Source of the DNA: Saccharothrix obliqua
Lineage (GTDB): Bacteria > Actinomycetota > Actinomycetes > Mycobacteriales > Pseudonocardiaceae
Assembly (NCBI RefSeq): GCF_019375475.1
Contig: NZ_JAHXGQ010000002.1
Location: 620,001 to 684,000, forward strand
Reading direction: 5' to 3'
DNA: 64,000 bases
This document shows, piece by piece, positions 5,376 to 56,262 of the stretch (the stretch's first letter is position 1; the number at the start of each line of letters is the position of its first letter). The notes under the pieces are model-generated. The model saw only the letters and a program-made list of their open reading frames with translations, ran no database searches and was not told the DNA's origin. The position numbers were made by a program, and so were the translations under genes.

Positions 5376-5420
5376 CGCCCGGCCGCGGGCAGCACCCGGG
5401 CCGGACGTCGCGACCACGCG

Positions 5421-6080: not shown

Positions 6081-6101
6081 CTCGGTGTCCTTTCGGCGGC
6101 G

Positions 6102-9327: not shown

Positions 9328-9348
9328 CGTTCCCCCAGTGAATGCGTG

Positions 9349-10512: not shown

Positions 10513-10551
10513 GCGGTCGCTCTCCAAGGAAGCCAAGGATATACATGACCA

Positions 10552-10563
10552 GTCATTAATGAC
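10552..10563. promoter_or_regulatory. Perfect 12-bp palindrome upstream of the sugar operon
   Basis: GTCATTAATGAC is fully self-complementary. It lies 40 bases upstream of the FG-GAP gene start in an AT-rich patch. A TATAT element (minus strand, about 10539-10545) lies between palindrome and start. It is placed as an operator overlapping the promoter of the minus-strand sugar genes. No regulator gene is adjacent. Confidence 0.5.
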
Positions 10564-11170: not shown

Positions 11171-11182
11171 TAGATTCTGAAT
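11171..11182 (+). promoter_or_regulatory. Candidate -10 element of a leaderless transcript
   Basis: TAGATT at 11171-11176 ends seven bases before the ATG at 11183. That places the expected transcription start at or next to the start codon, and no RBS precedes the ATG. Leaderless mRNAs are common in actinobacteria. No clear -35 hexamer is visible. Confidence 0.45.
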
Positions 11183-12468: not shown

Positions 12469-12517
12469 ACCCACAGGTCTTCCTGGTATCCCGGAAGCAC
12501 ACGGGGGGTGGGGGATC

Positions 12518-15331: not shown

Positions 15332-15339
15332 CCCACTGG

Positions 15340-31744: not shown

Positions 31745-32050
31745 ATGACCGGGTACGAGGCCGTCACCGGCGAGATCGACGCGTTGGCCGGCCGGGTGGA
31801 GGGACTGGCCGACCGGCTGCGCACGGCCGCGGACGCGGCGCGGACGGTGGCGATGAACGACTCCGCCTACGGCGTGGTGTGCCAACCGTTCGCGATGCTG
31901 CTCCAGCCGTTCGAGGACATGGGCGTGCAGGCGTTGACCAAGGCCGCGGAGACCGTGTCGGACAACGCCGCGAAACTGCGGGAGACCTCCCGCGCCTACG
32001 ACGCCCGGGAGAGCGGCGAGTCCGCGCGGTTCGACGGGATGAACACGTGA
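31745..32050 (+). CDS. ESX-associated (EspC-like) helical secretion partner
   Basis: The protein has 101 residues, almost all helical: MTGYEAVTGEIDALAGRV, LRTAADAARTVAMNDSAYG, CQPFAMLLQPFEDMGVQALTKAA. This is the ESX-1 secretion-associated (EspC/DUF2580) type, which forms helical hairpins with WXG partners. Its stop overlaps the GTG start of the Rhs toxin gene (GTGA). It probably guides the toxin to a type VII secretion system encoded elsewhere. Confidence 0.8.
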   Translation: MTGYEAVTGEIDALAGRVEGLADRLRTAADAARTVAMNDSAYGVVCQPFAMLLQPFEDMGVQALTKAAETVSDNAAKLRETSRAYDARESGESARFDGMNT

Positions 32051-38711: not shown

Positions 38712-39695
38712 TCAGCCCTGTGCGATGACCACGCGGACCGGGAGTTCGGAGTCATCGGTGTTGATGTCCTGTTCGAACCCGGCGGGGTTGTCGATGCGCC
38801 GTCCGGGGTCGTAGACCACCGCAACGAGTGCGGCGACGTTCTCCTGCCGCCGGTACCCGAACATGTCGTCGACGAGCTGGCGCCGTATCTCCTTCGCGCT
38901 CAGCGAAGGGCGGGTCATCTTGGCCTCGATCGCTACCTTCTCCTGCCGCAGCACGAAGTCGATCCGGTAGGAGCCGCCCGCCCGGCGCGGTGTCGTCTCT
39001 TCCGCCTCGACGTCGTCGAAGTGCAATCGGAGTACCGCGTGGAGCACCCGTTGAAGGTCGTACTCGTCGTTGACCTCCAAGCCCGCCCTGTCGCGGTTGC
39101 CGCGTTCGAGGATGGCCAACGCCGCCGGCAACCTGCGGAACAGGCTCACGAGCTGCTCGGTGGTCCGGAGCAGGTCGGGATTGACTCCGAGCCGTCCCTT
39201 CGCCTCCAGCAGGAGACGGCGTTGTTCGCGCAGCGGCTCCTCGAAGCTCCGCTTGAACGCGTACTGCCAGCGACCGTGACCCTTGAGGAACCGGGGCATG
39301 GATTCGTACAGCACCCAGGGCTGTCGGGGATTTGCCACGAACTGCTTGATCCGCGGGCTGAGCGTCGGACGCGTGGAATCGTACTGGGCAGTGAACTTTT
39401 CGCGGAGATCGTCCGGCAGAGCCGCGAGTGCCGCCGAGTACCACACCGGGTAGCGCTCCTGAAGTTCACGCGCCGCTGCTTCGCCTTCCACCTCCTCCTC
39501 GTGCTGCGCCCGCCTACCCAGTTCGACCAGCCCCTCCGCCTGCCCCAAGAGCACGGCAAGGTTGTTGGCGCTGCGCGTGTGATCCAGCATGGCCAGATCG
39601 TAGGCTCCCGGTCTGACGGTCCGGTGGCGTCCACAACGCCCACACCACTGCTCCCAGCCATCCCGGACGATGTTGAGCACACGACAGGCGGACAC
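38712..39695 (-). CDS. Protein with C-terminal DpnII/MboI-type restriction endonuclease fold
   Basis: The protein has 327 residues. The C-terminal 110 residues follow the REase_DpnII-MboI pattern: LQRVLHAVLRLHFDDVEAEE, GGSYRIDFVLRQEKVAIEAKMTR (catalytic D and E-x-K), IRRQLVDDMFGYR and VVYDPGRRIDNPAGFEQDI. The central part is helical with LYESMPRFLKGHGRWQYAFKR. The N-terminus holds half a zinc ribbon (WCGRCGRHRTV); the matching CCSCH lies just upstream of the chosen GTG in the same frame but without a start codon. The real start is therefore uncertain, and a frameshift from an ATG at 39720 is possible. It is probably a stand-alone defence nuclease. Confidence 0.75.
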   Translation of the reverse strand: MSACRVLNIVRDGWEQWCGRCGRHRTVRPGAYDLAMLDHTRSANNLAVLLGQAEGLVELGRRAQHEEEVEGEAAARELQERYPVWYSAALAALPDDLREKFTAQYDSTRPTLSPRIKQFVANPRQPWVLYESMPRFLKGHGRWQYAFKRSFEEPLREQRRLLLEAKGRLGVNPDLLRTTEQLVSLFRRLPAALAILERGNRDRAGLEVNDEYDLQRVLHAVLRLHFDDVEAEETTPRRAGGSYRIDFVLRQEKVAIEAKMTRPSLSAKEIRRQLVDDMFGYRRQENVAALVAVVYDPGRRIDNPAGFEQDINTDDSELPVRVVIAQG

Positions 39696-39744
39696 GCGGT
39701 GACACGAACAGCAACGACATGATTGGCCCCGACGGGTTGTCCGT

Positions 39745-39999
39745 TCAGTTCGCCCTTGGAGATGCCACTGAGGCGATGTTCTCCTCCAATACGAGTTGGA
39801 CCCGGCCGTCTTCGAAGGTGACCACTTGCCGAAAGAGGGTCGGCCCTCCCGACCTGGCGCAGGTCTGCGTACAGGCAGAGTTCTCCCGTGCCGCACTCGA
39901 CTGTCGTGCGGACGGATAGGCGTGGTCGAGTGTGGCCAGGTCGAGGTCATGGTCGATCACGACTCGGCTCCCTACTTCCGTCAGGAACGCGGCGCGCAC
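39745..39999 (-). CDS. Small hypothetical protein upstream of the DpnII-fold gene
   Basis: The protein has 84 residues from a GTG at 39999. The sequence (VRAAFLTEVGSRVVIDHDLD, TLFRQVVTFEDGRVQLVLEENI) is protein-like with alternating strands, ending 25 bases before the ATG at 39720. There is no good RBS. It could be a regulator or antitoxin-like partner of the downstream nuclease, or the end of a decayed larger gene. Confidence 0.4.
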   Translation of the reverse strand: MRAAFLTEVGSRVVIDHDLDLATLDHAYPSARQSSAARENSACTQTCARSGGPTLFRQVVTFEDGRVQLVLEENIASVASPRAN

Positions 40000-42244: not shown

Positions 42245-42613
42245 TTATTCCTCCGCTCCGCGCATGAGGGCGATCACCGCTTGGGTCCGATCGGCCACAG
42301 CCAATTTGTGGAAGATCGAGTTGAGGTGGTTCTTCACCGTCCGCTCCGAGATGTCGAGCGACCGGGCGATCGTGCGATTCGACATGCCTTGGGTGAGCAG
42401 GTCGACCACGTTCTGCTCACGTTCGGTGAATTGGGCGCGCGCCACCTTCCGACCGCAGATCGCCGACTGCCCCGCCACGGGCGCCAACTTGCTGATCTGC
42501 TCTGCGAGGTCGAGCAGCTGCTGGGCCTCCTGCTGGTGCGCTTGTAAACGACGGAGCAGTTCCACTATGTCCTGACTTCGTTTCTCACCCTCCCCGGAGG
42601 AGGCGGTCGACAT
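42245..42613 (-). CDS. Small LuxR-type HTH regulator
   Basis: The protein has 122 residues. The C-terminal 65 residues are a GerE/LuxR HTH: FTEREQNVVDLLTQGMSN, RTIARSLDISERTVKNHLNS, IFHKLAVADRTQAVIALMR. The N-terminal half is a predicted coiled coil (DIVELLRRLQAHQQEAQQLLDLAEQI) without a receiver domain, so it may dimerise constitutively. It lies 165 bases downstream of the lipid-synthase operon on the same strand and is a candidate cluster regulator. Confidence 0.85.
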   Translation of the reverse strand: MSTASSGEGEKRSQDIVELLRRLQAHQQEAQQLLDLAEQISKLAPVAGQSAICGRKVARAQFTEREQNVVDLLTQGMSNRTIARSLDISERTVKNHLNSIFHKLAVADRTQAVIALMRGAEE

Positions 42614-42778
42614 ACGAGGAACTCCTTACGGACCGAGACTTCGAAACCCTTCTCCAGGCGAGATCCTCTCATGTCTTCGATCTCGGAAGAATCCCCCGTT
42701 CGGCCGTGAAGCGGGTCGCGTGTGACATATCGAGCGGAATACAGTCAACCGTCGACGGCGGCGCGGAGGAATTGTGTT

Positions 42779-44515
42779 TCACCGATGCACCGGGTGGTGG
42801 AGCAGTTCTTCCGGCACGTCCAGCAGCAGTGGCGCGGCGTCGAGGTCGGTCAGGACGCGGTCGCACAGGTCGTGCTCGCGCTCGGCCAGCCGATCGAGCT
42901 GCTCGGCGGTGATCAGCCCTTCGCGGAGGTGGAAGGCGGCGTGCCGGGACAGCTCGCGCACCGCGTGCATCGCGCTCAGCGCGTCCGCCAGGCGTGTCGC
43001 CGAGCCGGCCGGCGAACTCGCGGGCGCCTCCGCGACCGCTTCGAGCATCAGGCGCGCCACGTGCGCTTCGGCCAGTTCCGCGCCCAGGTGGCTGCGGTTG
43101 TTCCACGCCTCGAAGCCCTGCTGGCCGCGGCTGGCGGCCAAGCGCATCCGGTCCGCCAGTCGCTCGTACAGCAGGCGCTCGCGTGCGCGGGCGAGACGGG
43201 GCCACGACGCGGGATCGGACAGGTCCATGTCGAGGGCGCCTTCGCGGAGCGGGGGTTCGTAGTGGTCGCCGGCGGCCATGCCGCGGGCGGCTTCCAGGAC
43301 GATGAGGTAGCCGTCACCCGCGGCGGGACCCAGCATGTGCGCCAGCCCTTGGTAGTCGACCCACCGGCCGGTGGCGAACACGCCGTGCGCCCCGCAACGG
43401 AGCGCGCACGTGGTCACGATGTCACCGGTCAGGGTGCTCGCGACCGCTTTGACCAGGCCGTAGGTGCGGTTCAACGCCGGTCCGGGCGACCAGGCGGACC
43501 CGTCCGGGGCGTGCTCGCGCGACCGGGTGCGCGCCGCCTTGACCCGCTCGACCAGGCGGGTCAGGGCGTAGCAGTCCGCCAACGCGCCGAAGAGCGGTCG
43601 CTGCTGGGCGCGGTGGTCGAGGACACCCCGCTCGCCGGCGAACCGCGACACCGTGAGCCGGTTCCGGGCGTGGCGCAGTGCGTTCACGACACCGGCACGG
43701 GCCACGGCGGCCAGCGCCGCCGACGAGGCCACCCAGGCGTTGTGCCGGATGTCGAGCGACCGCCTCAGCCGGCGGTCCGCACCGCCGAGTGGGTCGGCGA
43801 AAGCCCCGTCCGCGTCGAAGCGGGCGTTGTCGGCCAGCAGCGCGGTGCCGGGCAGGCGCAGGCCGTCGAACTCGATGAGCGCGTAGTCCAAGGGCAACAA
43901 CGGAGCCTCCGGCAACGGGACCACGCGCACGCCGTCCGGTGTGCCGTCGGCGGTGCGGATCGGTGTGACGAACGGGAACACGCCGTGGTCGCGTCCCCCG
44001 GCTCGGAGCCTGGCGTAGACCACGCCGGTCTTCGGCACGTGCGCCAGCCCCACGTTGGGCATGAACTTGCGCGCGGCCTCGTCGGGGGTGCGTAGCACGA
44101 ACTCCCCGGTGGCCACGTCGTGCTCGGCGGTGGTCCGGATGCCGAGGTGACTGTTGCCCCGGCCCAGCTCCGTGACGAGCAGGGCCCCGAAGCTGGACAT
44201 GTCGTCCAGCTCGCGCACGTGCTGTTCGGCTCGCTCGTCACCGAACTCGACGATCGCGCCGAGGCTGAGGCACACGTGCAACGTCAGCGCGAGGAACAGC
44301 GGTGGATCGGCCACGGCGGCCCACTCGAGGGTGGTGAACAGCTTGGGCAGGTCCCGCAGCAGGGCGCTGCCCGGTGGCAGGTGCCCGCCGACGACGCGGA
44401 GCCTCTCGTAGGTCAACTCGCAGCGCTCCTGGTAGTCCATGCCGCCGCGGGGTCGGAACACCTCGTGCCGGAACAACGTCGCCAGCACGTCGCGGAAGTC
44501 GTCATCGACCGGCAC
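42779..44515 (-). CDS. Acyl-CoA dehydrogenase/oxidase-like flavoenzyme
   Basis: The protein has 578 residues. The core of an acyl-CoA oxidase-type fold is visible: LLVTELGRGNSHLGIRTTAEHD (flavin/acyl-binding strand), FVLRTPDEAARKFMPNVGLAHV, GVFPFVTPIRTADG, RHNAWVASSAALAAVARAGVVNALRHARNR and CGAHGVFATGRWVDYQGLAHMLGPAAGDGYLIVLEAARGM. Length exceeds simple dehydrogenases (about 390) and is near oxidases (600-700). The GTG start lies behind a consensus GAGGAGGTG and overlaps the megasynthase 3' end by 14 bases. It probably adds a double bond to, or shortens, the acyl chain made by the operon. No catalytic base can be assigned by eye. Confidence 0.85.
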   Translation of the reverse strand: MPVDDDFRDVLATLFRHEVFRPRGGMDYQERCELTYERLRVVGGHLPPGSALLRDLPKLFTTLEWAAVADPPLFLALTLHVCLSLGAIVEFGDERAEQHVRELDDMSSFGALLVTELGRGNSHLGIRTTAEHDVATGEFVLRTPDEAARKFMPNVGLAHVPKTGVVYARLRAGGRDHGVFPFVTPIRTADGTPDGVRVVPLPEAPLLPLDYALIEFDGLRLPGTALLADNARFDADGAFADPLGGADRRLRRSLDIRHNAWVASSAALAAVARAGVVNALRHARNRLTVSRFAGERGVLDHRAQQRPLFGALADCYALTRLVERVKAARTRSREHAPDGSAWSPGPALNRTYGLVKAVASTLTGDIVTTCALRCGAHGVFATGRWVDYQGLAHMLGPAAGDGYLIVLEAARGMAAGDHYEPPLREGALDMDLSDPASWPRLARARERLLYERLADRMRLAASRGQQGFEAWNNRSHLGAELAEAHVARLMLEAVAEAPASSPAGSATRLADALSAMHAVRELSRHAAFHLREGLITAEQLDRLAEREHDLCDRVLTDLDAAPLLLDVPEELLHHPVHR

Positions 44516-47500
44516 GGCTCACCTCCTCCGAGGACGTGATGCCCGCGGCGCGCACCCCGGTCAGCCGCACCAGGGGCGTGCCGTCGGGAGCCGAGGCCAC
44601 CGCGTCACCGTCGGCGGCGACCACGGTGATGCCGTCGCCGTGCCGGTCGAGCAGTTCGACGTCGTTGGCACCCGTGTACCACTCCACCCGCTCCACCCCG
44701 GTCGGGATCGGCAGCGGATCGTCCTCGTCGCGTCGGTCGGCGATCAGCGCGCACTGGATCAGGGCGTCGACCAGCAGCACCGGCAGGCGCAGCCCCGCCA
44801 GCCGCTCGGCCCACCGCCCCAAGGAGGGGCGGAACCGCGCCCGGGCGCGGTGTGCGCCGGCACGCACCTCCGCGAGGCAGGCGAACGGCGGGTCGAGCAC
44901 CACCGGACCGGTCGTGCCGTAGCGGAACCCCGTCTCCGGCGGAGGTGCCCCCGGCGCGCTGCCGGCCGCGGGGCGCGGGTGCCGCGCGGCGAACTCCACC
45001 ACGGCGGCGGCGTGCGGGCGCCCGCCGACGAGCAGCCGCCCGTCGGGCGCGACGACGTCGGCCAGCACGCGCACCCGCACCCGGCCGTCACCGGTGTCGG
45101 ACGCCTCGACCGAGCACGTGCGCCCGGCTCGGCCCAGGACGGTCAGCGGAGCGCGGAACTCCAGGTCGGACACCGCCACCGGCACACCGCCGCGGTCACC
45201 GCGCAGGCTCGCGGCCACCGCCAGCTCGGCGATCCACGCACCCGGCAGCGTGGGCGCGCCGTGCAGCCGGTGGTGCCGGAAGTAGCCGTCCTCGTCGGGG
45301 TCCGGACGCCAGAGCAGCGCGCGCCCGCCGGGCTCCGGCGCGACCTCCACGGCGTGCCGGCGGGTGGTGACGAGCAACCGTCGCTCCGCGGTCCCGAGGT
45401 GGGTCACCTCCGGGTCGGGCAGACCTCGGCGCAGTTCGCGCAGGACGAGGTCGACGCCCTCCCGGTCCGACAAGCCGGTGAGCGCGCCCTGCCTGCGCAG
45501 CAGGTCCCGCACGACCGGTTCGGCGGCGAACCCGGACTGCTCCCACAGCGGTGAGGCGAACGTGGCCTCACGACCGCCCGGGCTGGCGGCCCGCCAGTGC
45601 GCCGCGAGGCCGAGGACCTCGTTGGCCGAGCAGTAGTCGGCCTCACCCGGCCAGCCCAGGACCGCCAGCAGGGAGCCGATGTTGAGCCAGCGGTCGGGAC
45701 GGCGGTGCGCGAACGCGGCGCACAGGTTGAGGTAGGCGAGCACCTTGGTGTCGCGCACCGCGCGAGCGGTGTCGAGGGAGGTGGTGGCCACGCGCCCGCC
45801 GACGTGCCTGCCGGCCGCGTTGACCAGCAGGTCGACCCGGTGGTGCGTGGTGAACACCCGGTCCACGGCCGCCGCGGTCTGCGCGGGGTCGGTGAGGTCG
45901 CAGCGGATGAAGCGGACCCGGTCGCCGCCGAGGATCGCGGCCAGGTCACCGACGGTTCGCGCGGTCTCCGCCGCCGCCGCGCGGTGGTCGTACTCGGCCG
46001 ACAGGCTCGCCACCGACGACGTCGGGTCTTCCCCGCGACGCCGCGACAGGAACTCCGCGCGGGTGGGTGGTTCCCCGGCTTCGGGGGCGTGGCGGCCCAG
46101 CAGGTACACCGCCTCCGGTGCGCTCTCCTCGGCCAGGCGCGCCAGGAGCCGGGCGGTCAGCCCCCTGGTGCCGCCCGCCGCCACGACGATCCCGCCGCTT
46201 GGCAGGGCCCCGTCGGCCGCCGGTCCGGGGTCCTCGACCAGCCGGTGCTCCAGGCGCCGCCCGGCCGCGTGGACCACCACGGCCAGGTCGTGCGCCCTGG
46301 CCGATTCCCGTGCCAGCAGGTCCAGGCCCGCCGGCGGGTCCGTCAGGTCGGTGACCACGGCGAACACCAGGGCGTTCGGCGTCTCGCGGGCCAGCGCCTT
46401 GACCAGCCCGGTGAACAGGCCCGCCGCCGGGTGGGGCGCGGCCGAGCGGACGGCTCCGGTGATCAGGACCGCGTAGGACGAGCTTCTCCGCCCGCGCCAC
46501 CTCTTGGCCGCGAGGAACGCGAGGTCGTGCGCCACGCGAAGCCGGTCGAGAGCCGAGAGGTCCGCCGACGCCGGGCCGTCCGCGTCCACCCGGATCAGGA
46601 CGCGGACGTGCTCGAACGGCGCCTCGTCGGGCGGCAGGAGCGCGGTCAGCTCCGCGGTGGTCGGCAGGCCGCCTCCCGCGGACGCGGGCGCGACGACGAC
46701 GCACGCGTCCCGTGGCAGCTCGACGCCGTCCACCAGTTCCGGGTGCGAGAGCACGACCAGGCTGCCGGGCGGCACCGACGGCAGCGGCGACCGGACGCGA
46801 CGCGGCGCGGCCGGAACCAGCCGAGGCGTCACCCGGGTCAGCGTCGTCCCGGTGGGCGCGGACCCGCCCGGGGCGGCCTCGGGTTCGGACGGCGTGGTGA
46901 GGTCGACCCAGGTGCCGACGTCCGCCGCCGAACCCACCGTCGCCTCGGCGTGCCCGCCGGCCAGCCGGGCCACGACGGCCAGCAGCGCATCGGCTCCCGG
47001 GTAGGTTCGACCCGAGCCGGCCAGCGGCGTGTGCCGGCGGGGCCTGGTGGCCGGGTCGGTCGGGCCGAAGCGGGTGCGCAGCCGGCACAGGACGGGTAGC
47101 GAGTGCCGCCGGGCGGTCGACTCGCGGACGAGCACCACCAGGAAAGCGCCTTCGGCCGGGGCGTCGGTCACGCCCGCCGAGGACAGCAGTCGCCGGTACT
47201 CCGCGGTGGTGTTGCCGTTGACGCCGGCGACCACGGCGGCGTCGAGGTCGCCGTGCCGCAGGTAGCGCTCGGCCGCGCGCAGCGCGTCCAGGCTCGAGTC
47301 GGGGCCGGCGTCGAAAGTCGCGTTGAGGCCGCGGAAGTCGCGGACGGAGGCCAGGCGCGAGGCGATGATGTTCGGCATGATGCCGGGGAAGGAGTCCTCG
47401 GTGGCGGCGGGCACCAGGGAGCGCACGTCGGCGGCCAGCCGGTCCAGCGACTCGGCCAGGTCGGCGTCGGCAGCCGTGTGGTCCACCAGCGCGCGGTCGA

Positions 47501-50054
47501 GGTCGCCCAGGTAGCAGCGCAGCGCGTAGTGGACCGCGCGGCGCGTGGGGCCCATGTGCCCGACCACGACGCCGGTGGTGTCGTGCAACTCCTCCAGCAC
47601 CGCGTCGACCTCGGGGGGCAACGCCGCCGCCGCGCGCAGCACCATGACCTGCGTGCGGTCCATGCCGCGCAGCGTGGCGGGTGGCAGCCTCACCTCCCGC
47701 CACCCCGGCAACGGGTGGTCGTCGCCGAAGGTCACGGGCGGCGCGGGCGCGGCGCCGCGCAGCCAGCCGGTCGCGTCGCCGCCGGGCACGTCGACCGCCC
47801 ACCCGACGACCACGACCTCCTCCGCCGCCGCGGCAGTGCCGCCGCCTGGCCGGTCGGGCCGGTCCTCGCCGAGCACGAGGTGCGCGTCGGTGCCGCCGAA
47901 CCCGAACGACGAGATGCCCACTCGGCGGGTGCCGTCCCGTCCCGCGCGCACGGCACGTGCCGCCCCCGCTGTCGGCGGCGTGAACCGGCCCTCGGCGACG
48001 GCGTCGATGGGATCGCGCAGGTACGGCTGCGCGGGCGCCTCGCCGCGGGCCAGACCGGACAACGCCTGGCTGAGCGAGACCAGCCCCGCGGCCCAACCGG
48101 TGTGCCCGACCACGGCCTTGTTGGACGACAGCAGCGCCGGACCGCCCTGCCCGGCGACCTCCCGCAGGGCGGTCACCTCCGTGCTGTCGCCCGCACGGGT
48201 CCCGGTCGCGTGGGCGACGACCCAGCCCACGTCGGCCGGGTCGACCCCGGCGGCGCGGTAGGCCCGGCGCAGGGCCAGGGCCTGGCCCTCGGGGTTGGGC
48301 GCGTAGATGGCCTTGCCCCGGCCGTCGCCCGCCAGCCCGATGCCCTCCACGACGCCGAGCACCCGGTCGCCGTCGGCGTGCGCGCGGTCCAGCCGCTTGA
48401 GGACCACGGCGCCGGCCCCGTCGGAGAACAGCACGCCGTCCGCCGCGCGGTCGAAGCAGCGCACCGTGCCCGACCGGGAAAGCCCCTGGAGCTTGGAGAA
48501 CAGCACCAGGTTGCGCGCGCTGTAGGCGAACGCGCCGCCGCAGACGGCCAGCTCGGCACTGCCTTCCCGCAGCGCCTTGACCCCGAGGTCCAGGGCGTAG
48601 AGCGAGGAGGAGCACGCGGTGTCCACCATGACCAGCTCCGTGTCGTCCGGCAGCAGTCCCGCGATGGCGTTGCGGCCGACCCGGTGGGGCAGGAACTCGT
48701 GCGGCGGTTGGCCCAGGCGGTCGTAGCGCTCCCGCAGCACGCGCACGGCGTCCTCCGGCAGGCGGTCGGCGACGCGGTCGAGGTAGCCGGTCAGCACGAG
48801 GTGCGCTTCGAGGTCCTGGCTGCCGTCGGCGGTGTAGCCGAACGCCGCGAAGCAGCGGTCGCCCGCCGACCTGCCGACGCCCTCCAGCGCCGCGTGCAGG
48901 CAGTGGCGCAGCCACAACGTGGTGGCCTCCCGGCTCAGCGCGGGGTCGCCCGCCAGTTCGGCCGCCAGGCGCGGGTGGGGGCGGAAGTCGGTGATGAACC
49001 CCGATTCCGGGGAGTAGGTCCGGTCCTCGGAATCGGGATCGGTCGAGTGGAAGGACGTCACGTCGAACAGCACGGGACGGCGGAAGGCGTTCCGCCCGTC
49101 CGACAGCAGCCGCCACAGCTCGCCCGGGTCGTTCGCGCCGGGGGTCACCACGCCGACGCCCACCACCGCCACCGCGTCGTCCCGCGCCCGCACCCGGGCC
49201 ACCCGCTTCTCCTGTGCCGCCGTCCCGGCCGCGCTGCGCTCCGGCGACGGCGGGTCCGTGGCGCCCTCACGGCGCGGTGGCGCGAGCATCGCGGCGCCGA
49301 GGGAGAGCCCACCGTCGGCCACCACTGTCTGCCCGGTGATCCAGGACGCGGCCGGCGAGGCGAGGAAGACCACCAGTTCGGCGAGTTCCTCCTCGCGCCC
49401 GAGGCGGTGGCCGAGGGGCGTCGCCTCCCGCACCCGCTCGGCCAACCGCTCGGCGTCGGGGAACAGGCCGGCGACCGCGCTGTCCAGCAGGCCGCCGGAG
49501 GCCGTGTTGACCCGGATGCCGTCGGGGGCGAACTCCACCGCCAGGTAACGCGTCAGCGCTTCCACGGCGGCCTTCGTGGTGCCCACGGTGGCGTAGTCCC
49601 CGATCACGAGCGAGCTGCCGATCGAGGACAGGTTCACGATCGCGCCACCACCGCGGCCGACCATCAGGCGCGCCGCGCGCCGGGCGCACCTCAGGCTGCC
49701 GCGCAGGTTGGTGTCCACCGCCCGTTGCCAGTGCGACTCGTGCAGTTGGTCCATCGGGAGCAACGCGCCCGACGCCGCGTTGTTCACCAGCACGTCCACC
49801 GCGCCGTGCCGCTGCCGCACCGCGTCGAACATCGTGTCGACCTGGTCCGCGACGGCCACCGACGCGCGCACCGCCTCCGCCGACCAGCCCCGGGCGGTCA
49901 GCTCCTCGACCACCCGGGGGGCCTCGGCGGTGGCGTGGAAGTAGTTGACGATCACGTGTGCGCCCCGGCGGGCGAACGCCGTGGCGACCGCCCTGCCCAC
50001 CCCGCGCGCGCCTCCGGTGACGAGGACGACCCGGCCCGCGAACTCGCCGCTCAC
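44502..50054 (-). CDS. Megasynthase: FabL-type enoyl reductase - ketosynthase - CLF-like - ketoreductase - dehydratase
   Basis: The protein has 1850 residues. Residues 1-262 are an SDR with VVLVTGGARGVGRAVA and YATVGTTK (Tyr154-x6-Lys161). That spacing and VNTASGGLLDS are those of enoyl-ACP reductase III (FabL), not of a ketoreductase. Residues 292-725 are a complete ketosynthase: VDTACSSS (Cys481), HATGT (His615), GHTGWAAG (His651). Residues 745-1075 are a second KS fold with FDAGPDSS, where Gly917 replaces the Cys, as in chain-length factors. A linker is followed by a ketoreductase (about 1286-1490; VVAAGGTRGL, IGSLLAVLGWPGEADYCSAN). Residues 1573-1850 are a dehydratase with HRLHGAPTLP (His1595) and DALIQ (Asp1763). 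AT and ACP are absent and are supplied by the next gene upstream, whose stop overlaps this GTG start. Confidence 0.92.
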   Translation of the reverse strand: MSGEFAGRVVLVTGGARGVGRAVATAFARRGAHVIVNYFHATAEAPRVVEELTARGWSAEAVRASVAVADQVDTMFDAVRQRHGAVDVLVNNAASGALLPMDQLHESHWQRAVDTNLRGSLRCARRAARLMVGRGGGAIVNLSSIGSSLVIGDYATVGTTKAAVEALTRYLAVEFAPDGIRVNTASGGLLDSAVAGLFPDAERLAERVREATPLGHRLGREEELAELVVFLASPAASWITGQTVVADGGLSLGAAMLAPPRREGATDPPSPERSAAGTAAQEKRVARVRARDDAVAVVGVGVVTPGANDPGELWRLLSDGRNAFRRPVLFDVTSFHSTDPDSEDRTYSPESGFITDFRPHPRLAAELAGDPALSREATTLWLRHCLHAALEGVGRSAGDRCFAAFGYTADGSQDLEAHLVLTGYLDRVADRLPEDAVRVLRERYDRLGQPPHEFLPHRVGRNAIAGLLPDDTELVMVDTACSSSLYALDLGVKALREGSAELAVCGGAFAYSARNLVLFSKLQGLSRSGTVRCFDRAADGVLFSDGAGAVVLKRLDRAHADGDRVLGVVEGIGLAGDGRGKAIYAPNPEGQALALRRAYRAAGVDPADVGWVVAHATGTRAGDSTEVTALREVAGQGGPALLSSNKAVVGHTGWAAGLVSLSQALSGLARGEAPAQPYLRDPIDAVAEGRFTPPTAGAARAVRAGRDGTRRVGISSFGFGGTDAHLVLGEDRPDRPGGGTAAAAEEVVVVGWAVDVPGGDATGWLRGAAPAPPVTFGDDHPLPGWREVRLPPATLRGMDRTQVMVLRAAAALPPEVDAVLEELHDTTGVVVGHMGPTRRAVHYALRCYLGDLDRALVDHTAADADLAESLDRLAADVRSLVPAATEDSFPGIMPNIIASRLASVRDFRGLNATFDAGPDSSLDALRAAERYLRHGDLDAAVVAGVNGNTTAEYRRLLSSAGVTDAPAEGAFLVVLVRESTARRHSLPVLCRLRTRFGPTDPATRPRRHTPLAGSGRTYPGADALLAVVARLAGGHAEATVGSAADVGTWVDLTTPSEPEAAPGGSAPTGTTLTRVTPRLVPAAPRRVRSPLPSVPPGSLVVLSHPELVDGVELPRDACVVVAPASAGGGLPTTAELTALLPPDEAPFEHVRVLIRVDADGPASADLSALDRLRVAHDLAFLAAKRWRGRRSSSYAVLITGAVRSAAPHPAAGLFTGLVKALARETPNALVFAVVTDLTDPPAGLDLLARESARAHDLAVVVHAAGRRLEHRLVEDPGPAADGALPSGGIVVAAGGTRGLTARLLARLAEESAPEAVYLLGRHAPEAGEPPTRAEFLSRRRGEDPTSSVASLSAEYDHRAAAAETARTVGDLAAILGGDRVRFIRCDLTDPAQTAAAVDRVFTTHHRVDLLVNAAGRHVGGRVATTSLDTARAVRDTKVLAYLNLCAAFAHRRPDRWLNIGSLLAVLGWPGEADYCSANEVLGLAAHWRAASPGGREATFASPLWEQSGFAAEPVVRDLLRRQGALTGLSDREGVDLVLRELRRGLPDPEVTHLGTAERRLLVTTRRHAVEVAPEPGGRALLWRPDPDEDGYFRHHRLHGAPTLPGAWIAELAVAASLRGDRGGVPVAVSDLEFRAPLTVLGRAGRTCSVEASDTGDGRVRVRVLADVVAPDGRLLVGGRPHAAAVVEFAARHPRPAAGSAPGAPPPETGFRYGTTGPVVLDPPFACLAEVRAGAHRARARFRPSLGRWAERLAGLRLPVLLVDALIQCALIADRRDEDDPLPIPTGVERVEWYTGANDVELLDRHGDGITVVAADGDAVASAPDGTPLVRLTGVRAAGITSSEEVSRAGR

Positions 50055-51376
50055 CGCGATGCCCCGGCCGTGGTGACGTAGTCGGCGATGCGGCCGAGCG
50101 TCGGCAACTCCCACACCGGCAGTTCCGCCGGGCGATCGGCCAGGCCGAACCGCTCGACGACCCGGCCCAGCAGCGAGGTCTGCTTCAGCGAGTCGACACC
50201 CAGCTCGGCCTCCAGCAGGGCGTCCTCGGTCAGCAGGTCGGCCGGGTACTCCAGCGCGGCGGCGTACAGCTCGCGCAACTCGGCGAGGACCCGGCGTCGG
50301 TCCGCCGCCGCAGGCGCTACCGGGACGGGCTCACCGACCACGCCGACCACCTGCGCCTCGGCGGGCGGGGAAGTCCGCGCCGGCTGCCCGTTGCGGGACG
50401 CGCGCGCCGGTGGCGGTGCGGCCGGGTCGGTGGCGGCGCGCAGGCCCGCGTCCTCCTGCTCGGGGTCGACCAGCGGGGCGACGACCCGCACGTCGGGCAC
50501 AGTCTGCTCGACGCACTTGACCAGGGCGTTGAGCGCGCCGCTCTCGATGAAGGTGGTGTGGCCCTTCGCGTGCAGCTCCCGAACGGCGTCGACGAACCGC
50601 ACCGGGCGCACCAGGCACTCGGCCAGCGCCCACTTGAGGTCGTCGTCGTCGGTGTAGCGGCGGCCGTGGACGGGCGAGTAGACCGCCTGCTCGAACGGGT
50701 GTTGGCGGATCCCGCCCGTCCTTTCCAGGAAGTCGGCCACCGCCGGTCGCATCGACGGGTGGTGCGACGCGTAGGGCAGGTGCAGGCGTGCGAACAGCAC
50801 GTCGAGGTTCGCCGCGAGCCGCTCGGCGCGGTCCAGTGCCGGCAGCGGACCCGCGAGCACGGTCTGGCGAGGCGCGTTCAGGCAGGCCACCACCAGGTCG
50901 GGCTCGTCCAGCACCCCGGCGACGTGGCCGGCGGTCGCCTCGTCGACGCCGATCGCGGCCATCCCGCCCCGGCCTTCCCAGGGCCTCAGCGCCGCGGCCC
51001 TGGCGCACACCAGCCGGACCCCGTCGGCCGGCGTGAACGCCCCGGCCGCGACCAGCGCCGCCATTTCCCCGAAGCTGTGGCCCACGAGCAGCCGCGGCGT
51101 GACCCCTCGCGCGACGAGGATGCGGTGCACGGCCACGGAGACGCCGAAGATGGCCAACTGGAGCACCTCGGCCGGTTCGGCGAGCAGGTCGCGGATCGGG
51201 CGCGGCTCGCCGTCGAACAGGGCCGCCGACACCGGCGGCACGTCGAGCCGCGCGGCGGCGGCGTCGATCTCGTCGAAGACGGCGTCGACTTCGCGGTGGG
51301 AGGCCCTGGCCTGCCGGAGCACTCCCGGGGAGTACGCGCCGAGACCGGGGAACAGGAGCACGGGACGATCGGACAC
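50051..51376 (-). CDS. Stand-alone acyltransferase-ACP didomain protein
   Basis: The protein has 441 residues. Residues 1-300 are a malonyl-type acyltransferase: LLFPGLGAYSPG, LLVGHSFGEMAALVAAG (Ser101) and LHLPYASHHPSM, with FIESGALNALVK near the end. A Pro/Ala linker (about 310-350) leads to one acyl carrier protein (LGVDSLKQTSLL, phosphopantetheine Ser about 396). PUFA synthases usually carry tandem ACPs; here there is one. The GTG at 51376 has GGAGGCCCC upstream. The last four bases overlap the megasynthase start, so the two are made together and probably form one complex. Confidence 0.9.
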   Translation of the reverse strand: MSDRPVLLFPGLGAYSPGVLRQARASHREVDAVFDEIDAAAARLDVPPVSAALFDGEPRPIRDLLAEPAEVLQLAIFGVSVAVHRILVARGVTPRLLVGHSFGEMAALVAAGAFTPADGVRLVCARAAALRPWEGRGGMAAIGVDEATAGHVAGVLDEPDLVVACLNAPRQTVLAGPLPALDRAERLAANLDVLFARLHLPYASHHPSMRPAVADFLERTGGIRQHPFEQAVYSPVHGRRYTDDDDLKWALAECLVRPVRFVDAVRELHAKGHTTFIESGALNALVKCVEQTVPDVRVVAPLVDPEQEDAGLRAATDPAAPPPARASRNGQPARTSPPAEAQVVGVVGEPVPVAPAAADRRRVLAELRELYAAALEYPADLLTEDALLEAELGVDSLKQTSLLGRVVERFGLADRPAELPVWELPTLGRIADYVTTAGASR

Positions 51377-51407
51377 TGATGGGGCCTCCGGAGGTATCCG
51401 TGTGGGC

Positions 51408-52232
51408 TCAGACGGGGATGCGGCCGTGCTGGAGGAAGCCGAGGAGCTGCGGCCCGCCGACGAAGCAGGTCGTGCCACCGTCGGAGACCAGGCAGCTGCC
51501 GGTGACGCCGCGCGAGGCGTCGCCCGCCAGGTAGACCACCGACCCGACCACGTCCGACGGGTCGCCGATCGCGCCGGACGGCACCGCCGCCAGCAGACCC
51601 GCGCTCGCGTCCGGGTCGGCGAGGAAGGCGCGGGTCAGGTCGGTCCGCACCCATCCGGGCGCCAGGGCGTTCACCCGCACACCCGCGGCAGCCCACTCGG
51701 CGGCCAGCGTCCGGGTCAGCGAGATGACGGCGGCCTTGGTGACGGCGTAGTGCGCGAGCATGGGCGTGCCGCCGAGCCCGGCGATCGACGAGATGTTGAT
51801 GACGGAGCCGCCGCCCCGCTCGACCATGTGCGCACCGAACACGTGGCAGGCGTGGACGGTGGACTCCAGGTTCAGCCGCAGCACCCGCCTCCAGTCGTCG
51901 AAATCCAGGTCCAGGAACGGGCCCGCGTGACCGATCCCGCCCGCGTTGTTGACCAGCACGTCCAGCGCGCCGAACTCCGCGAACGTCGTCCGCGCGGCCT
52001 GGCGGATCTGGTCGCTGTCGTTGACGTCGCAGGTCAGGACGAGCGCCCGGCGGCCGAGCGACTCCACCTCCCCGGCCAGGCGCTCCAACGCGGTCGTGCC
52101 GCGCGCGAGCAGCGCGACGTCCGCGCCCGCCTCGGCCAACCCGGTGGCGACCGCCCGGCCGATCCCCCTCGACGCCCCGGTCACGAGTGCCGTCTTGCCC
52201 TTCAGGTCGAACAGGTCCAACGCGGACGCCAT
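51408..52232 (-). CDS. Short-chain dehydrogenase/reductase of the lipid operon
   Basis: The protein has 274 residues of classical SDR type: TALVTGASRGIGRAVATGLAE (NADP-binding), LVNNAGGIGHAG, VINISSIAGLGGTPMLAHYAVTKAA (Ser, Tyr-x3-Lys) and VRVNALAPGWVRTDL. It is FabG-like. It may reduce a beta-keto or fatty-aldehyde intermediate, or supply a ketoreduction separate from the megasynthase KR. It lies 35 bases after the WS/DGAT gene and 31 before the AT-ACP gene. GGAGGACCC precedes the ATG. Confidence 0.9.
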   Translation of the reverse strand: MASALDLFDLKGKTALVTGASRGIGRAVATGLAEAGADVALLARGTTALERLAGEVESLGRRALVLTCDVNDSDQIRQAARTTFAEFGALDVLVNNAGGIGHAGPFLDLDFDDWRRVLRLNLESTVHACHVFGAHMVERGGGSVINISSIAGLGGTPMLAHYAVTKAAVISLTRTLAAEWAAAGVRVNALAPGWVRTDLTRAFLADPDASAGLLAAVPSGAIGDPSDVVGSVVYLAGDASRGVTGSCLVSDGGTTCFVGGPQLLGFLQHGRIPV

Positions 52233-52267
52233 GGGTCCTCCGGTTCGCGGGTCGGTTGTGGCGGTGC

Positions 52268-53731
52268 TCAGGCGGTCGTGGCCGGGGCGTCGGCCCGCGG
52301 GGCGAGGGCGATGACCTCCTCGAAGCTGTCACGCAGCGCGGCGACGAAGGCGTCCGGATCGGTGAACGCGCCGGTGTCGAGCGTGATCCCGATGTGGCAG
52401 CGGTCCCCGTACGTGGTCAACGCGATGCTCGTCGCCCCGCGCAGCAGCGGCGGGAACGGCGAGACGCCCAGCACCCTCGCCCCGACCAGGCGGAACTCCC
52501 CCGGCACACCGGGGAAGTTGGTGGCGATCAGGTCGTTGCCGTGGAACATCCGGGTGAACACGAACCTCACCAGCGGTCCGGGCAGCGGCGTGATCGGGCG
52601 GGTGAGCAGGTCCAACGCGCGCAGCACCGGTTTGGTGCGCACCGCGGCCACCCGCCGGCGGGACTCGGCGATCCGCTCGACGGGGCTCAGGCCCGACACC
52701 GGCATGGCCAACCTCGTGCTGGCCAGTCGGTTCCCGGCCGGCAGGTCGTCGCGTCGGCGCACGCTGATCGGGATCAGGAACGGGACCGCGGGCAGGTCCA
52801 GCCCGAAGTGGCGGTGGTACCGCTCGAAGCCGCCCATGAGACCTGCCACGAAGGCGTCGTTCAAGGTGCCGCCCCCGGCCTTTCCCCCCGCCCTGAGCGC
52901 CCGCACGGGGAACTCCAAGGCGTCGAAGTGCATCGCGTGGCTGCGTGCGCGCAACAGTGGTGACGCGGGGACCGGTGGCAGCAACGTGGTCCGGGCGAAC
53001 GACATCAAGCCGTCGGCGACGCGGTCGACCGGCGGCAGGGCGAACCCGGGCTTGGCGTTGCCCCGTCTCGCGCGGATCCCACCGGCGGCGCGGACCAGTG
53101 CCGGGACCACCCTGGACAGGTTCTTGGCGAGGCGGCCGGTGAGCAGTGCGACGGCGACGGCGGGCCGCGCTTCGGGCACCGGCGGCAGAGCGGGTTCGCC
53201 CACCGAGGACGTCGCGTCGTCCAGCACGACCGCGGCCAACTGCGCCGCGCCCAGGCCGTCACTGAGGCTGTGGTGCAGTTTGAGCAGGTAGGCCGCCCGG
53301 CCGCCGCGGCCGTCGTCGAGCCCTTCCACCAGCGTCACCTCCCACAGCGGGCGTTCCGGTGGCAGGGGCGTGGAAGCGACCGCCTGGGCGAGGTCGAGCA
53401 ACTGGCGGGTCGTGCCGGGCTCCGGCAGCCGCACCCGGCGCACGTGGTTGCGCACGTCGAAGGTCCGGTCCACCACCCAGAACGGCCGCCCCAGCCTCAG
53501 CGGCGGCTCCAGGGCCCGGTGCCGCAACCGGGGCGCGATCCGGGTGCTCCACTCGTGCCTGTCCACGAACCGCCCCCAGTCGGGGCACCGGTCGAGCACG
53601 AAGACACCCAGCATGTTCGACCGCATCCCCGGGTGGTTCTCCGCGCGCCAGAACAACGTCTCCAGGGCGTTCATCTCGACCGGCGCGCGCCAGACGGCGC
53701 GGGCGGGTGCCCCTGTTCCGCGTTCGGCCAT
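52268..53731 (-). CDS. Wax ester synthase/diacylglycerol acyltransferase (WS/DGAT)
   Basis: The protein has 487 residues. The catalytic HHxxxDG motif is LHHSLSDGLGAAQL (His153, His154, Asp158). Further family blocks are the N-terminal VEMNALETLFWRAEN, PLPPERPLWEVTLVEGLD, and the C-terminal LVRFVFTRMFHGNDLIATNFPG, GVSPFPPLLRGATSIALTTYGDRCHIGITLD. WS/DGAT enzymes transfer acyl groups to alcohols or diacylglycerol. As first gene of the lipid-synthase operon it is the likely release or esterification enzyme for the new acyl chain. RBS GGGGGAAG precedes the ATG. Confidence 0.92.
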   Translation of the reverse strand: MAERGTGAPARAVWRAPVEMNALETLFWRAENHPGMRSNMLGVFVLDRCPDWGRFVDRHEWSTRIAPRLRHRALEPPLRLGRPFWVVDRTFDVRNHVRRVRLPEPGTTRQLLDLAQAVASTPLPPERPLWEVTLVEGLDDGRGGRAAYLLKLHHSLSDGLGAAQLAAVVLDDATSSVGEPALPPVPEARPAVAVALLTGRLAKNLSRVVPALVRAAGGIRARRGNAKPGFALPPVDRVADGLMSFARTTLLPPVPASPLLRARSHAMHFDALEFPVRALRAGGKAGGGTLNDAFVAGLMGGFERYHRHFGLDLPAVPFLIPISVRRRDDLPAGNRLASTRLAMPVSGLSPVERIAESRRRVAAVRTKPVLRALDLLTRPITPLPGPLVRFVFTRMFHGNDLIATNFPGVPGEFRLVGARVLGVSPFPPLLRGATSIALTTYGDRCHIGITLDTGAFTDPDAFVAALRDSFEEVIALAPRADAPATTA

Positions 53732-54496: not shown

Positions 54497-54784
54497 ATGG
54501 GCATGGGGGCAAGGCGCGTGCTCGTGCGTGAGCGGGACGGCGGCCTCACCGACGTGGCGAGGCGGCGACCGGTCACGGACTCGGAGGTCCTCGACGACCT
54601 CCGCGCCGGGCGGCCGTTCCGGGCTCACCGGCGTGACACGGGAGCCGACTGCACGATCGAGGTCCTCGCCCGCGTGCTGGGACTGCCGCTCGGCCTGAGC
54701 GGACGACGTGACACGCGCTCGCCCCTCGCGCAGTTCGCGGAGGGACTGATCGGCTCGCGTCGCCCCGGTTGCGATCCGCGTTGA
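54497..54784 (+). CDS. PhaR-like (PHA accumulation regulator) DNA-binding domain protein
   Basis: The protein has 95 residues. RRVLVRERDGGLTDVARRRPVTDSEVLDDLRAGRPFR then VLARVLGL mirrors the PhaR N-terminal domain, which reads I-K-R-Y-x-N-R-K-L-Y-D-T then V-T-L-x-x-I-x-x-L-I-x-x-G. The match is divergent. The C-terminal 25 residues (LAQFAEGLIGSR) are helical. Its stop overlaps a TTG start of the kinase gene. A role in sensing lipid or polyester granules is inferred, and is notable next to a WS/DGAT operon. Confidence 0.55.
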   Translation: MGMGARRVLVRERDGGLTDVARRRPVTDSEVLDDLRAGRPFRAHRRDTGADCTIEVLARVLGLPLGLSGRRDTRSPLAQFAEGLIGSRRPGCDPR

Positions 54785-56262
54785 ACCCGGCACGGGCGAG
54801 GCTGGTCGCCGTGACGCTCGCACGCGTGGTTCGCTCCGGCCGCGAGCAGCACCCCGGCTCGCGGCGGCGTGCCGTCGCGGTGCGGCGAGCCCTCGAAGCG
54901 CTCGGTCCGCTGTACATCAAGCTCGGGCAGGTCCTGTCCACCCGACCCGACCTCGTCTCCGCGGCCATGACCGATGAGCTGGCCACCCTGCACGACAACG
55001 TGCCCGCCGCCCCGTTCGACGGCTTCGCACGGGTGCTGGAGGAGGAGTTGGGCGTCGGGTGGCGTCGGGGCTTCCGGTGCTTCGACGCCGAGCGCCCGCT
55101 GGGCTCGGCGTCGTTGGCGCAGGTCTACCGCGCGGACATGCCGGACGGCCGGCCCGTGGCGGTGAAGGTGCAGCGGTCCGGGGTGCGGTCCGTCGTCGAC
55201 GCGGACATGGCGGTGCTGCGCCGCGCCGCGCGGTGGTCGGCGCGCCTGTGGCCCGAGTTCAACGCCGTCATCGACTTCAGGGCGATGCTCGACCTCATCT
55301 TCGACGCCGTGCGCGGCGAACTCGACTTCACCGTCGAAGCGCGGCAGATGGAGATCGGCAGGAAGGCCACCGGGGATTTCGCCCACCTCACCGTGCCGGA
55401 GGTCGTCAGGGCGACACCGAGGGTGCTGGTGCAGGACCTGGCGCCGGGACGTTCGATCCGCGACGCCGTGCCCGACGAGTTCACCCGGCACGAGCGGCTG
55501 GCCATCGCCCACGACCTGATGGCGTTCATGTACCGCGGGTACTTCGTCGAGCGGATCTTCCACGCCGATCCGCACCCCGGCAACGTGTTCGTCGCGCCCG
55601 GCCACCCCGCCGCCCTGATCGACTGGGGCATGGTCGGCCGCCTGGACCGGCCGCTCAGCCTCAAGCTGGCGCTCACCCTGATCAACATCGTGCAGAACGA
55701 CGGCGACGGCGCGGCCAAGGCGTGGATCGAGATGGGAAAGCCGACCCGCCGGGCCGACATCGGCGGATTCACCAGCGACGTCGCCGCGTTGGTGCCCAAG
55801 GCGGCGACCGCGACGCTGGCGGAACTCGACTTCGGGCTCACGCTGACCGCCGTGCTGCGCCACTCCACCCTGCGCGGCATCAAGACCAACCCCGCCGTGC
55901 CGCTCTTGGGCAAGTCCTTCGCCAACATGGAGGGCTCGATCCGCTGCCTGGCCCCCGAGCTTTCCGCCGCGGAGGTCTTCCGCGACCAGCTCACCGACAT
56001 CATGGTGGACCTGGCGTGCGAAACGCTGTCCGAGGCCCAGATCGCGCGCACCATGACCGAGCTGCTGTTGACGGCAGACGGAAGCTACAACCAGGCGCGG
56101 GGCATCCTCCGCGACCTGGCGGACCGCGAACTCCAACTGCCGGTGGAGTCCGGCAACGGTCCCGGGGCCAACCCCACCTTCACCCGGCTGGCGCTGCTGG
56201 CGATCGCCGTTGCCGCCGTCGGATACCTGAGGAGGGGCTCTTCCCGGCACGACGGTGCTTGA
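54781..56262 (+). CDS. ABC1/UbiB/ADCK-family atypical kinase
   Basis: The protein has 493 residues. The family-specific KxGQ motif is LYIKLGQVLSTRPDLV. It is followed by LGSASLAQVYRADMPDGRPVAVKVQR (nucleotide-binding Ala-rich loop and VAVK lysine), the catalytic HADPHPGNVFV and the metal-binding LIDWGMVGRL. A C-terminal hydrophobic helix (FTRLALLAIAVAAVGYL) can anchor it to the membrane. UbiB-like proteins support ubiquinone/menaquinone or lipid handling. The TTG start overlaps the previous stop by four bases, so the three genes form one operon. Confidence 0.9.
   Translation: MNPARARLVAVTLARVVRSGREQHPGSRRRAVAVRRALEALGPLYIKLGQVLSTRPDLVSAAMTDELATLHDNVPAAPFDGFARVLEEELGVGWRRGFRCFDAERPLGSASLAQVYRADMPDGRPVAVKVQRSGVRSVVDADMAVLRRAARWSARLWPEFNAVIDFRAMLDLIFDAVRGELDFTVEARQMEIGRKATGDFAHLTVPEVVRATPRVLVQDLAPGRSIRDAVPDEFTRHERLAIAHDLMAFMYRGYFVERIFHADPHPGNVFVAPGHPAALIDWGMVGRLDRPLSLKLALTLINIVQNDGDGAAKAWIEMGKPTRRADIGGFTSDVAALVPKAATATLAELDFGLTLTAVLRHSTLRGIKTNPAVPLLGKSFANMEGSIRCLAPELSAAEVFRDQLTDIMVDLACETLSEAQIARTMTELLLTADGSYNQARGILRDLADRELQLPVESGNGPGANPTFTRLALLAIAVAAVGYLRRGSSRHDGA

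What the first reader, a model, noticed from the sequence alone, without database searches (positions are those of the whole stretch)
42245..53731. Compact PUFA-synthase-like operon coupled to a wax ester/DGAT enzyme
Five minus-strand genes with 31-35 base gaps or 4-14 base overlaps encode WS/DGAT, SDR, AT-ACP, an ER-KS-CLF-KR-DH megasynthase and an acyl-CoA dehydrogenase-like enzyme; a LuxR gene follows. KS-CLF and the KR and DH functions are hallmarks of PUFA/HglE-type iterative synthases. Here the AT and a single ACP are on a separate protein, the enoyl reductase is an SDR, and release seems to be by direct esterification. I know no characterised system with this set. Predicted product: a wax ester or triacylglycerol-type lipid with a dedicated, possibly unsaturated, acyl chain.
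Basis: partly seen in the sequence, partly recalled or inferred. Interest (0 to 1): 0.88.

Follow-up and report, generated by a model that had tools for sequence, protein, structure and literature searches.

The report
Lipid synthase paired with ester-forming enzyme
A soil actinobacterium carries a compact gene set for an iterative fatty-acid-like synthase beside an enzyme of the kind that makes wax esters and oils; the synthase is one of a widespread family, and the repeated pairing with the ester-forming enzyme suggests that the genes make a dedicated ester lipid of still unknown structure.

Summary
Six minus-strand genes (42245-53731) encode WS/DGAT, an SDR, AT-ACP, an SDR-type ER-KS-CLF-KR-DH megasynthase, an acyl-CoA-oxidase-like flavoprotein and a LuxR-type regulator. 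The nearest relatives are Saccharothrix. The AT-ACP plus megasynthase pair is not unique: one scan found 66 loci from Actinomycetota, Burkholderia, Bacillota and Chloroflexota, 63 with AT upstream, catalytic residues mostly kept. It works like a PUFA synthase but is not one: one ACP, FabL-type enoyl reductase, one PKS-type dehydratase. The WS/DGAT link is confined to this genus among the loci seen, and recurrent there: beside 9 of 10 megasynthase loci in 25 held genomes, and 0 of 86 loci from elsewhere. These WS/DGATs group together, while their synthases come from separate lineages; two lineages share one chromosomal site. That supports real coupling, probably esterification of a dedicated acyl chain. 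Product, acceptor alcohol and release step are inferred. The oxidase-like protein has lost the glutamate that acts as base in acyl-CoA oxidases, so ordinary desaturation is unlikely. Verdict: new variant of a known kind.

The parts
52268..53731 (-). WS/DGAT-family O-acyltransferase, 487 aa, first gene of the operon
   Evidence: PF03007 153 bits and PF06974 54 bits, over cut-off; TIGR02946 264.5 bits, under its cut-off of 309.95; HHSLSDG motif; solved relatives 6chj, 7nxg
51408..52232 (-). stand-alone FabG-like SDR, 274 aa, with Y-x3-K
   Evidence: PF13561 213 bits; motif read in the sequence
50051..51376 (-). AT-ACP didomain protein, 441 aa (GTG start 51376)
   Evidence: PF00698 115 bits and PF00550 32 bits, one stretch each; GHSFG and GVDSL motifs; start by comparison with S26
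44502..50054 (-). megasynthase ER-KS-CLF-KR-DH, GTG start overlapping the AT-ACP stop
49275..50051 (-). N-terminal SDR domain, FabL-type enoyl reductase (Y-x6-K)
   Evidence: NF005975 FabL 254.6 bits, under its cut-off of 328
47853..49184 (-). ketosynthase domain with Cys-His-His
   Evidence: PF00109 and PF02801; full-length match to 6riw; residues
46962..47831 (-). chain-length-factor domain; the KS cysteine position holds Pro here
   Evidence: weak KS-like match; no Cys at this column in 82 of 83 relatives
45585..46193 (-). ketoreductase domain with K, S, Y, N
   Evidence: PF08659 99 bits over two stretches; residues
44544..45302 (-). double-hotdog dehydratase domain, HxxxG and D-x3-Q
   Evidence: PF21089 and PF14765; residues
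42779..44515 (-). acyl-CoA-oxidase-like flavoprotein without the catalytic Glu, 578 aa
   Evidence: PF01756 and PF22924; solved relatives 2fon, 1w07; missing Glu
42245..42613 (-). small LuxR-type (GerE) regulator, 122 aa, 165 nt after the flavoprotein gene
   Evidence: PF00196 68.5 bits; kept in S26, S. algeriensis and G023
54769..56262 (+). flanking ABC1-type kinase gene; marks the shared chromosomal site, not proposed as part of the pathway
   Evidence: PF03109 182 bits; beside the WS/DGAT in six genomes

Best explanation
A self-contained secondary-lipid pathway. The AT loads malonyl units on its own ACP. The megasynthase works in trans on that ACP: KS-CLF condenses iteratively, KR and DH process each unit, and the N-terminal FabL-type SDR reduces the enoyl, in all or some rounds. 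The stand-alone SDR and the oxidase-like flavoprotein modify the chain; lacking the usual base, the flavoprotein is more likely a flavin oxygenase or an isomerising/reducing enzyme than a desaturase. The WS/DGAT then moves the finished acyl chain from ACP or CoA to an alcohol, giving a dedicated ester lipid. This resembles the mycobacterial Mas-PapA5 pair, where an iterative PKS is emptied by an acyltransferase. Shown: genes, domains, residues, conservation and recurrent pairing. Inferred: iteration, substrates, release by the WS/DGAT, and the ester product.
For: Domain set; enoyl-reductase type; KS-CLF similarity to 6riw; catalytic residues in relatives: KS C/H/H 83 of 83, KR K/Y/N 82 of 82 with a hit, ACP serine 79 of 79 with a hit, ER Tyr and Lys each 65 of 66 with a hit. 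No thioesterase among the six genes. Tight junctions. The block is conserved as a unit and under constraint. Pairing: WS/DGAT beside 9 of 10 megasynthase loci in the 25 held genomes of the genus and 0 of 86 loci from elsewhere. Paired WS/DGATs form one side of a 100/100 branch, while their megasynthases are separate lineages (the T1 plus T2 clade is rejected, AU p 6.9e-69), so the pairing arose or was kept more than once. Precedent for an acyltransferase emptying an iterative PKS: PMC5064953 (passages).
Against: The same synthase, SDR and flavoprotein occur without WS/DGAT in G023, two Allokutzneria and one Streptomyces. In G110 the WS/DGAT and LuxR gene survive although synthase and AT-ACP are not found there, so the enzyme may have a use of its own. 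No alcohol-forming enzyme or PPTase is among the six genes. The WS/DGAT scores under the TIGR02946 cut-off. The type-3 partners read HHxxxDA. The grouping of type 1 and 2 WS/DGATs has only 91/93 support. The AU test named its group after the tree was seen.
Confidence: 0.55

Rival explanations
1. The synthase makes an acyl chain for a different acceptor (an amine, a peptide or a coenzyme-bound intermediate), and the WS/DGAT is a neutral-lipid enzyme that sits at the same site and stores acyl chains, without being the release step.
For: The core goes without WS/DGAT in its nearest relatives outside the genus. In S. tanashiensis it stands beside NRPS genes. WS/DGAT survives alone in G110.
Against: Pairing with three synthase lineages in one genus and no WS/DGAT beside 86 loci from elsewhere. 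No NRPS or aminotransferase is among the six genes. The other WS/DGAT-family protein of this genome reads HQxxxDG, so the operon copy is the only one of the two with the canonical motif.
Confidence: 0.25
2. A conventional PUFA/HglE-type lipid synthase that makes a polyunsaturated membrane or storage acyl chain.
For: KS-CLF pair resembling 6riw, KR and DH present.
Against: One ACP; an SDR reductase and no PfaD-like gene among the six; one PKS-type DH rather than two FabA-like DH/I domains; far under the TIGR02813 cut-off (213 of 1010 bits).
Confidence: 0.1
3. The chain is mainly a polyene or hydroxylated polyketide that is tailored by the flavoprotein acting as a DszC-like oxygenase, and the ester step protects or exports it (antibiotic or pigment rather than storage lipid).
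For: Loss of the oxidase base in the six sequences aligned; relatives of the core sit beside P450, FMO, Rieske or NRPS genes; a LuxR-type regulator.
Against: The enoyl reductase is part of the same protein and its residues are intact, which argues for at least partial saturation. No exporter among the six genes.
Confidence: 0.15

Closest known systems
Two-gene AT-ACP / ER-KS-CLF-KR-DH synthase family (relatives found here; no product found)
   Same: Domain order, AT-ACP directly upstream, catalytic residues
   Different: Outside this genus none of the 86 loci looked at had a WS/DGAT beside it; accessory genes differ (P450-KR fusion, FMO, NRPS)
PUFA synthases PfaA-D and secondary lipid synthases of Shulse and Allen (PMC3098273; passages and section 7 read)
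   Same: KS-CLF didomain, KR, DH, iterative logic
   Different: One ACP on a separate AT-ACP; SDR enoyl reductase fused in front of KS; no second DH; the KS-CLF, KR and DH in one chain. Their Figure 1 is not held, so their 20 types could not be compared one by one
Mycobacterial Mas-PapA5 (PMC5064953, passages)
   Same: Iterative type I PKS whose chain is moved to an alcohol by a dedicated HHxxxDG-type acyltransferase (motif of PapA5 recalled)
   Different: Mas holds its own AT and ACP, has no CLF, and extends a loaded fatty acid; no AMP ligase in this operon
SgaAB sphinganine pathway of Pseudomonas (PMC12134224, passages)
   Same: An iterative PKS makes a long acyl chain that a partner enzyme takes off
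   Different: Partner is an alpha-oxoamine synthase; the paper calls SgaA a monomodular PKS and does not contain the term 'chain length factor'
Bacterial WS/DGAT (6chj, 7nxg)
   Same: Pfam domains, HHxxxDG, sequence similarity over most of the length
   Different: Part of a lipid-synthase operon; under the TIGR02946 cut-off

Membership tests
PUFA synthase (PfaA-D) | KS-CLF didomain | tested here: met
PUFA synthase (PfaA-D) | tandem ACP domains | tested here: not met
   one PP-binding stretch in AT-ACP, none reported in the megasynthase
PUFA synthase (PfaA-D) | PfaD-type enoyl reductase | tested here: not met
   no such domain among the six genes; FabL-type SDR instead
PUFA synthase (PfaA-D) | two FabA-like DH/I domains | tested here: not met
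   one PKS_DH_N/PS-DH unit
PUFA synthase (PfaA-D) | makes polyunsaturated fatty acids | not testable with these tools
   needs product analysis
FabL enoyl-ACP reductase | Y-x6-K catalytic spacing and closest solved relative | tested here: met
   YATVGTTK aligned to the same spacing in 3oic, 197 bits against 150 for the best FabG
FabL enoyl-ACP reductase | NCBIfam NF005975 cut-off | tested here: not met
   254.6 bits against 328
WS/DGAT | Pfam domains and HHxxxDG | tested here: met
WS/DGAT | NCBIfam TIGR02946 cut-off | tested here: not met
   264.5 bits against 309.95
WS/DGAT | acyl transfer to an alcohol or diacylglycerol | not testable with these tools
   needs an enzyme assay
Acyl-CoA oxidase | family domains | tested here: met
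   PF01756 and PF22924 over cut-off; solved relatives
Acyl-CoA oxidase | catalytic glutamate (TYEG segment; its role recalled) | tested here: not met
   PAAG in window, S26, S. algeriensis and G023; AAGG in two Allokutzneria and one Streptomyces
Mas-PapA5-like release | acyltransferase takes the chain directly from the synthase | not testable with these tools
   only the genetic pairing was tested

The most novel reading that the evidence does not exclude
In Saccharothrix the WS/DGAT is the constant exit enzyme of a lipid cassette-exchange site: next to the same ABC1 kinase gene, one WS/DGAT lineage is combined with interchangeable iterative synthases (type 1 with the flavoprotein, type 2 without it, both in tandem in one genome), and it empties a discrete AT-ACP by direct transesterification. 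That would be a release mode for KS-CLF synthases not described in anything I could search.
Probability: 0.3. Interest if true: 0.75.

Novelty: new variant of a known kind. Interest (0 to 1): 0.57.

Why it matters
A KS-CLF synthase family spread over several phyla, with an unusual domain order and no product that I found in print, would gain a first entry point: a six-gene set with clear borders, a likely exit enzyme, and natural knock-outs and swaps among close relatives. It makes testable whether WS/DGAT enzymes can release chains directly from a carrier protein and whether one exit enzyme serves different synthases, which bears on making designed esters.

Tried and rejected
Rejected readings. 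(1) A unique operon: rejected. (2) A plain PUFA synthase: fails three defining features (membership test). (3) WS/DGAT as a mere neighbour: my view after (2 of 66 loci), changed by the genus-wide searches. (4) The N-terminal SDR as a second ketoreductase: less likely. (5) A simple duplication of the whole operon as origin of types 1 and 2: disfavoured, since their megasynthases do not group.

Led nowhere. One search queried the viral collection with a wrong reading frame, so its empty result means nothing. The AlphaFold model of the flavoprotein is weak (mean pLDDT 62.5); its fold match to acyl-CoA oxidases adds little to the sequence match, and the segment with the missing glutamate is below 50. 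The simple gene caller misplaces starts and some genes; gene ends that matter were checked by homology. In one search the FabG count of 24 of 66 is inflated by cross-matches to the ER domain; separate FabG genes are seen in 10 (L016, L017, L047, L064 upstream; L018, L069, L071, L073, L074, L075 downstream), and the two missing KS of the 17 loci are an artefact of my distance limits (one search shows them). An earlier count said that D-x3-Q of the DH occurs only in the window clade; one search shows that L110 has it too. Shulse and Allen's type M could not be compared because the figure is not held.
Full report
What is there. The window lies in an 8.04 Mb, 49-contig assembly. Its nearest relatives by the KS-CLF protein are Saccharothrix sp. 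S26 (94%) and S. algeriensis (81%). On the minus strand six genes follow each other: WS/DGAT, FabG-like SDR, AT-ACP, a megasynthase, an acyl-CoA-oxidase-like protein and a small LuxR-type regulator. The first five have gaps of 31-35 nt or overlaps of 4 and 14 nt; the LuxR gene follows after 165 nt.

Domains. The megasynthase reads SDR-KS-CLF-KR-DH. The SDR is FabL-like: the best solved relative is the enoyl-ACP reductase 3oic (197 bits; best FabG 150) and the Tyr-Lys spacing is Y-x6-K; it stays under the NCBIfam FabL cut-off. Over its whole length the KS matches 6riw, 'ORF10' (187 bits for the KS-CLF query; that this is the PfaC KS-CLF of Moritella is recalled); 7zma scores higher in total, from two KS copies. 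In 83 relatives the KS Cys-His-His is kept in 83; the CLF has no cysteine at that column in 82; KR Lys, Tyr and Asn are kept in 82 of 82 with a hit; the ER Tyr and Lys each in 65 of 66 with a hit; the DH His in 74 and Asp in 75 of 75 with a hit. After the DH Asp most relatives have D-x3-R (66 of 75); the six nearest relatives and L110 have D-x3-Q, as the window has.

The synthase family. A protein search of plasmids found a full-length relative in Paraburkholderia ginsengisoli beside an AT-ACP gene, and further ones in Streptomyces. One scan of the genome collection gave 66 loci in Actinomycetota, Pseudomonadota, Bacillota and Chloroflexota. An AT lies upstream in 63 of 66; the three misses lie near the end of their contig or locus. 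ACP was seen in 62, ER in 54, KR in 65, DH in 63, the oxidase-like gene in 5, WS/DGAT in 2. Where no ER was found the N-terminus can still be an SDR too diverged to match (S. tanashiensis, judged by eye). In a sample of 150 genomes of the family 16, the window's own included, have a CLF match. Accessory genes vary: P450-KR fusion and FMO in P. ginsengisoli, NRPS, reductase and MFS genes in S. tanashiensis. So the core is a general-purpose chain maker; I found no characterised member in ten library searches, which cover open-access papers only.

The window's clade. The nearest group holds Saccharothrix, G023 (another genus), two Allokutzneria and one Streptomyces (7 rows, support 99, drawn open). 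All carry the oxidase-like gene and a FabG gene. In the six full sequences aligned, and in the broken G023 copy, the segment that holds the catalytic glutamate of acyl-CoA oxidases (TYEG; role recalled) reads PAAG or AAGG. Ordinary alpha-beta dehydrogenation is therefore unlikely; other members of the fold in secondary metabolism act as oxygenases or unusual oxidases (recalled).

The WS/DGAT link. In the first survey it looked like a Saccharothrix add-on. Searching the 25 held genomes of the genus changed this. Ten megasynthase loci occur in 8 genomes, and 9 of the 10 have a WS/DGAT beside them. There are three arrangements. Type 1 (window, S26, G150, G164) is WS/DGAT-FabG-AT/ACP-megasynthase-flavoprotein, with LuxR found in the first three. 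Type 2 (G164, G150, G151) is WS/DGAT-LuxR-AT/ACP-megasynthase-FabG, without flavoprotein; the WS/DGAT is 49-54% identical. Type 3 (G156, G152) is AT/ACP-megasynthase-FabG-WS/DGAT, with no ER match and WS/DGAT 32-33% identical. G167 has a megasynthase locus without WS/DGAT. G150 and S. algeriensis, and G160 and S26, share the same DNA. With three WS/DGAT probes none of the 86 loci from elsewhere (64, 17, 5 from plasmids; three are repeats; some are cut by contig ends) had a hit.

Different histories. The paired WS/DGATs lie on one side of a 100/100 branch from the other WS/DGATs sampled (rooting by midpoint). Their megasynthases do not: type 1 groups with Allokutzneria, types 2 and 3 fall elsewhere, and a clade of types 1 and 2 is rejected (AU p 6.9e-69, quick tree, group named afterwards). 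Type 1 in the window, S26 and G110, and type 2 in G164, G150 and G151, sit beside the same ABC1 kinase gene and small gene; in G164 both types stand in tandem. In G110 the WS/DGAT (72%) and LuxR gene remain with scraps of FabG and flavoprotein; the AT-ACP and megasynthase are not found there, and discrete KS- and AT-like genes lie beyond the kinase gene. The simplest reading is that one exit enzyme has been combined with different synthases at one site. This is inference from a small sample.

How it most likely works. AT loads malonyl on the ACP; the megasynthase extends and reduces the chain in trans; SDR and flavoprotein modify it; WS/DGAT passes it to an alcohol. The nearest functional parallel is Mas-PapA5 (PMC5064953, passages). 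Not shown: iteration, chain length, substrates, acceptor, or direct transfer from ACP. The genome's other WS/DGAT-family protein reads HQxxxDG, so the operon enzyme is the only one of the two with the canonical motif.

What speaks against. The nearest synthases outside the genus do without WS/DGAT; WS/DGAT outlives the synthase in G110; no alcohol-forming enzyme or PPTase is among the six genes; the enzyme scores under the NCBIfam cut-off; type 3 partners read HHxxxDA. I put the coupled ester-lipid reading at 0.55.

Verdict. Observation confirmed, interpretation partly supported. A new variant of a known kind: a KS-CLF lipid synthase with an unusual domain order, from a widespread family, recurrently paired with a WS/DGAT in one genus.

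Noticed in passing
window 57179-58342 (-): AlkZ-like DNA glycosylase gene (PF06224, 165 bits) near the operon; it lies outside the block conserved with S26, which ends at 56270, so I do not link it to the pathway.
   Followed up: partly
window 31879-36399 (+): Large RHS-repeat protein with a weak WXG100-like N-terminal match.
   Followed up: no
window 38712-39950 (-): Protein with a DpnII-MboI-type restriction endonuclease domain at its end (130 bits).
   Followed up: no
L131 (G110) 7776-16000: Relict of the operon in a congener: WS/DGAT and LuxR kept, scraps of FabG and flavoprotein, no AT-ACP or megasynthase found; discrete KS- and AT-like genes beyond the kinase gene.
   Followed up: yes
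L142 14631-16203, L144 15688-17296, L145 19363-19899: A DUF6230-DUF6114 gene pair lies downstream of the type 2 operons (only DUF6230 within the stretch held for L145).
   Followed up: no
L056 (Streptomyces tanashiensis) 1-6659 and 7904-15043: The same synthase core beside an NRPS with a luciferase-like monooxygenase and methyltransferase region, and a PCP-reductase protein; looks like a lipopeptide pathway with reductive release.
   Followed up: no
L005 20949-26381 (Paraburkholderia ginsengisoli plasmid): P450 fused to a KR domain, then an FMO, directly after the core; a second KR match at a similar distance in many Burkholderia and Nocardia loci suggests the same fusion there.
   Followed up: partly
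L007 11900-14900 (Streptomyces YIM 121038 plasmid): A copy of the core whose matches lie in several frames, probably a decayed copy.
   Followed up: no
G000:C1:751790-752584 (L119): The genome's other WS/DGAT-family protein has HQxxxDG instead of HHxxxDG; the other sampled WS/DGATs of the genus and family read HQ or HN as well.
   Followed up: partly
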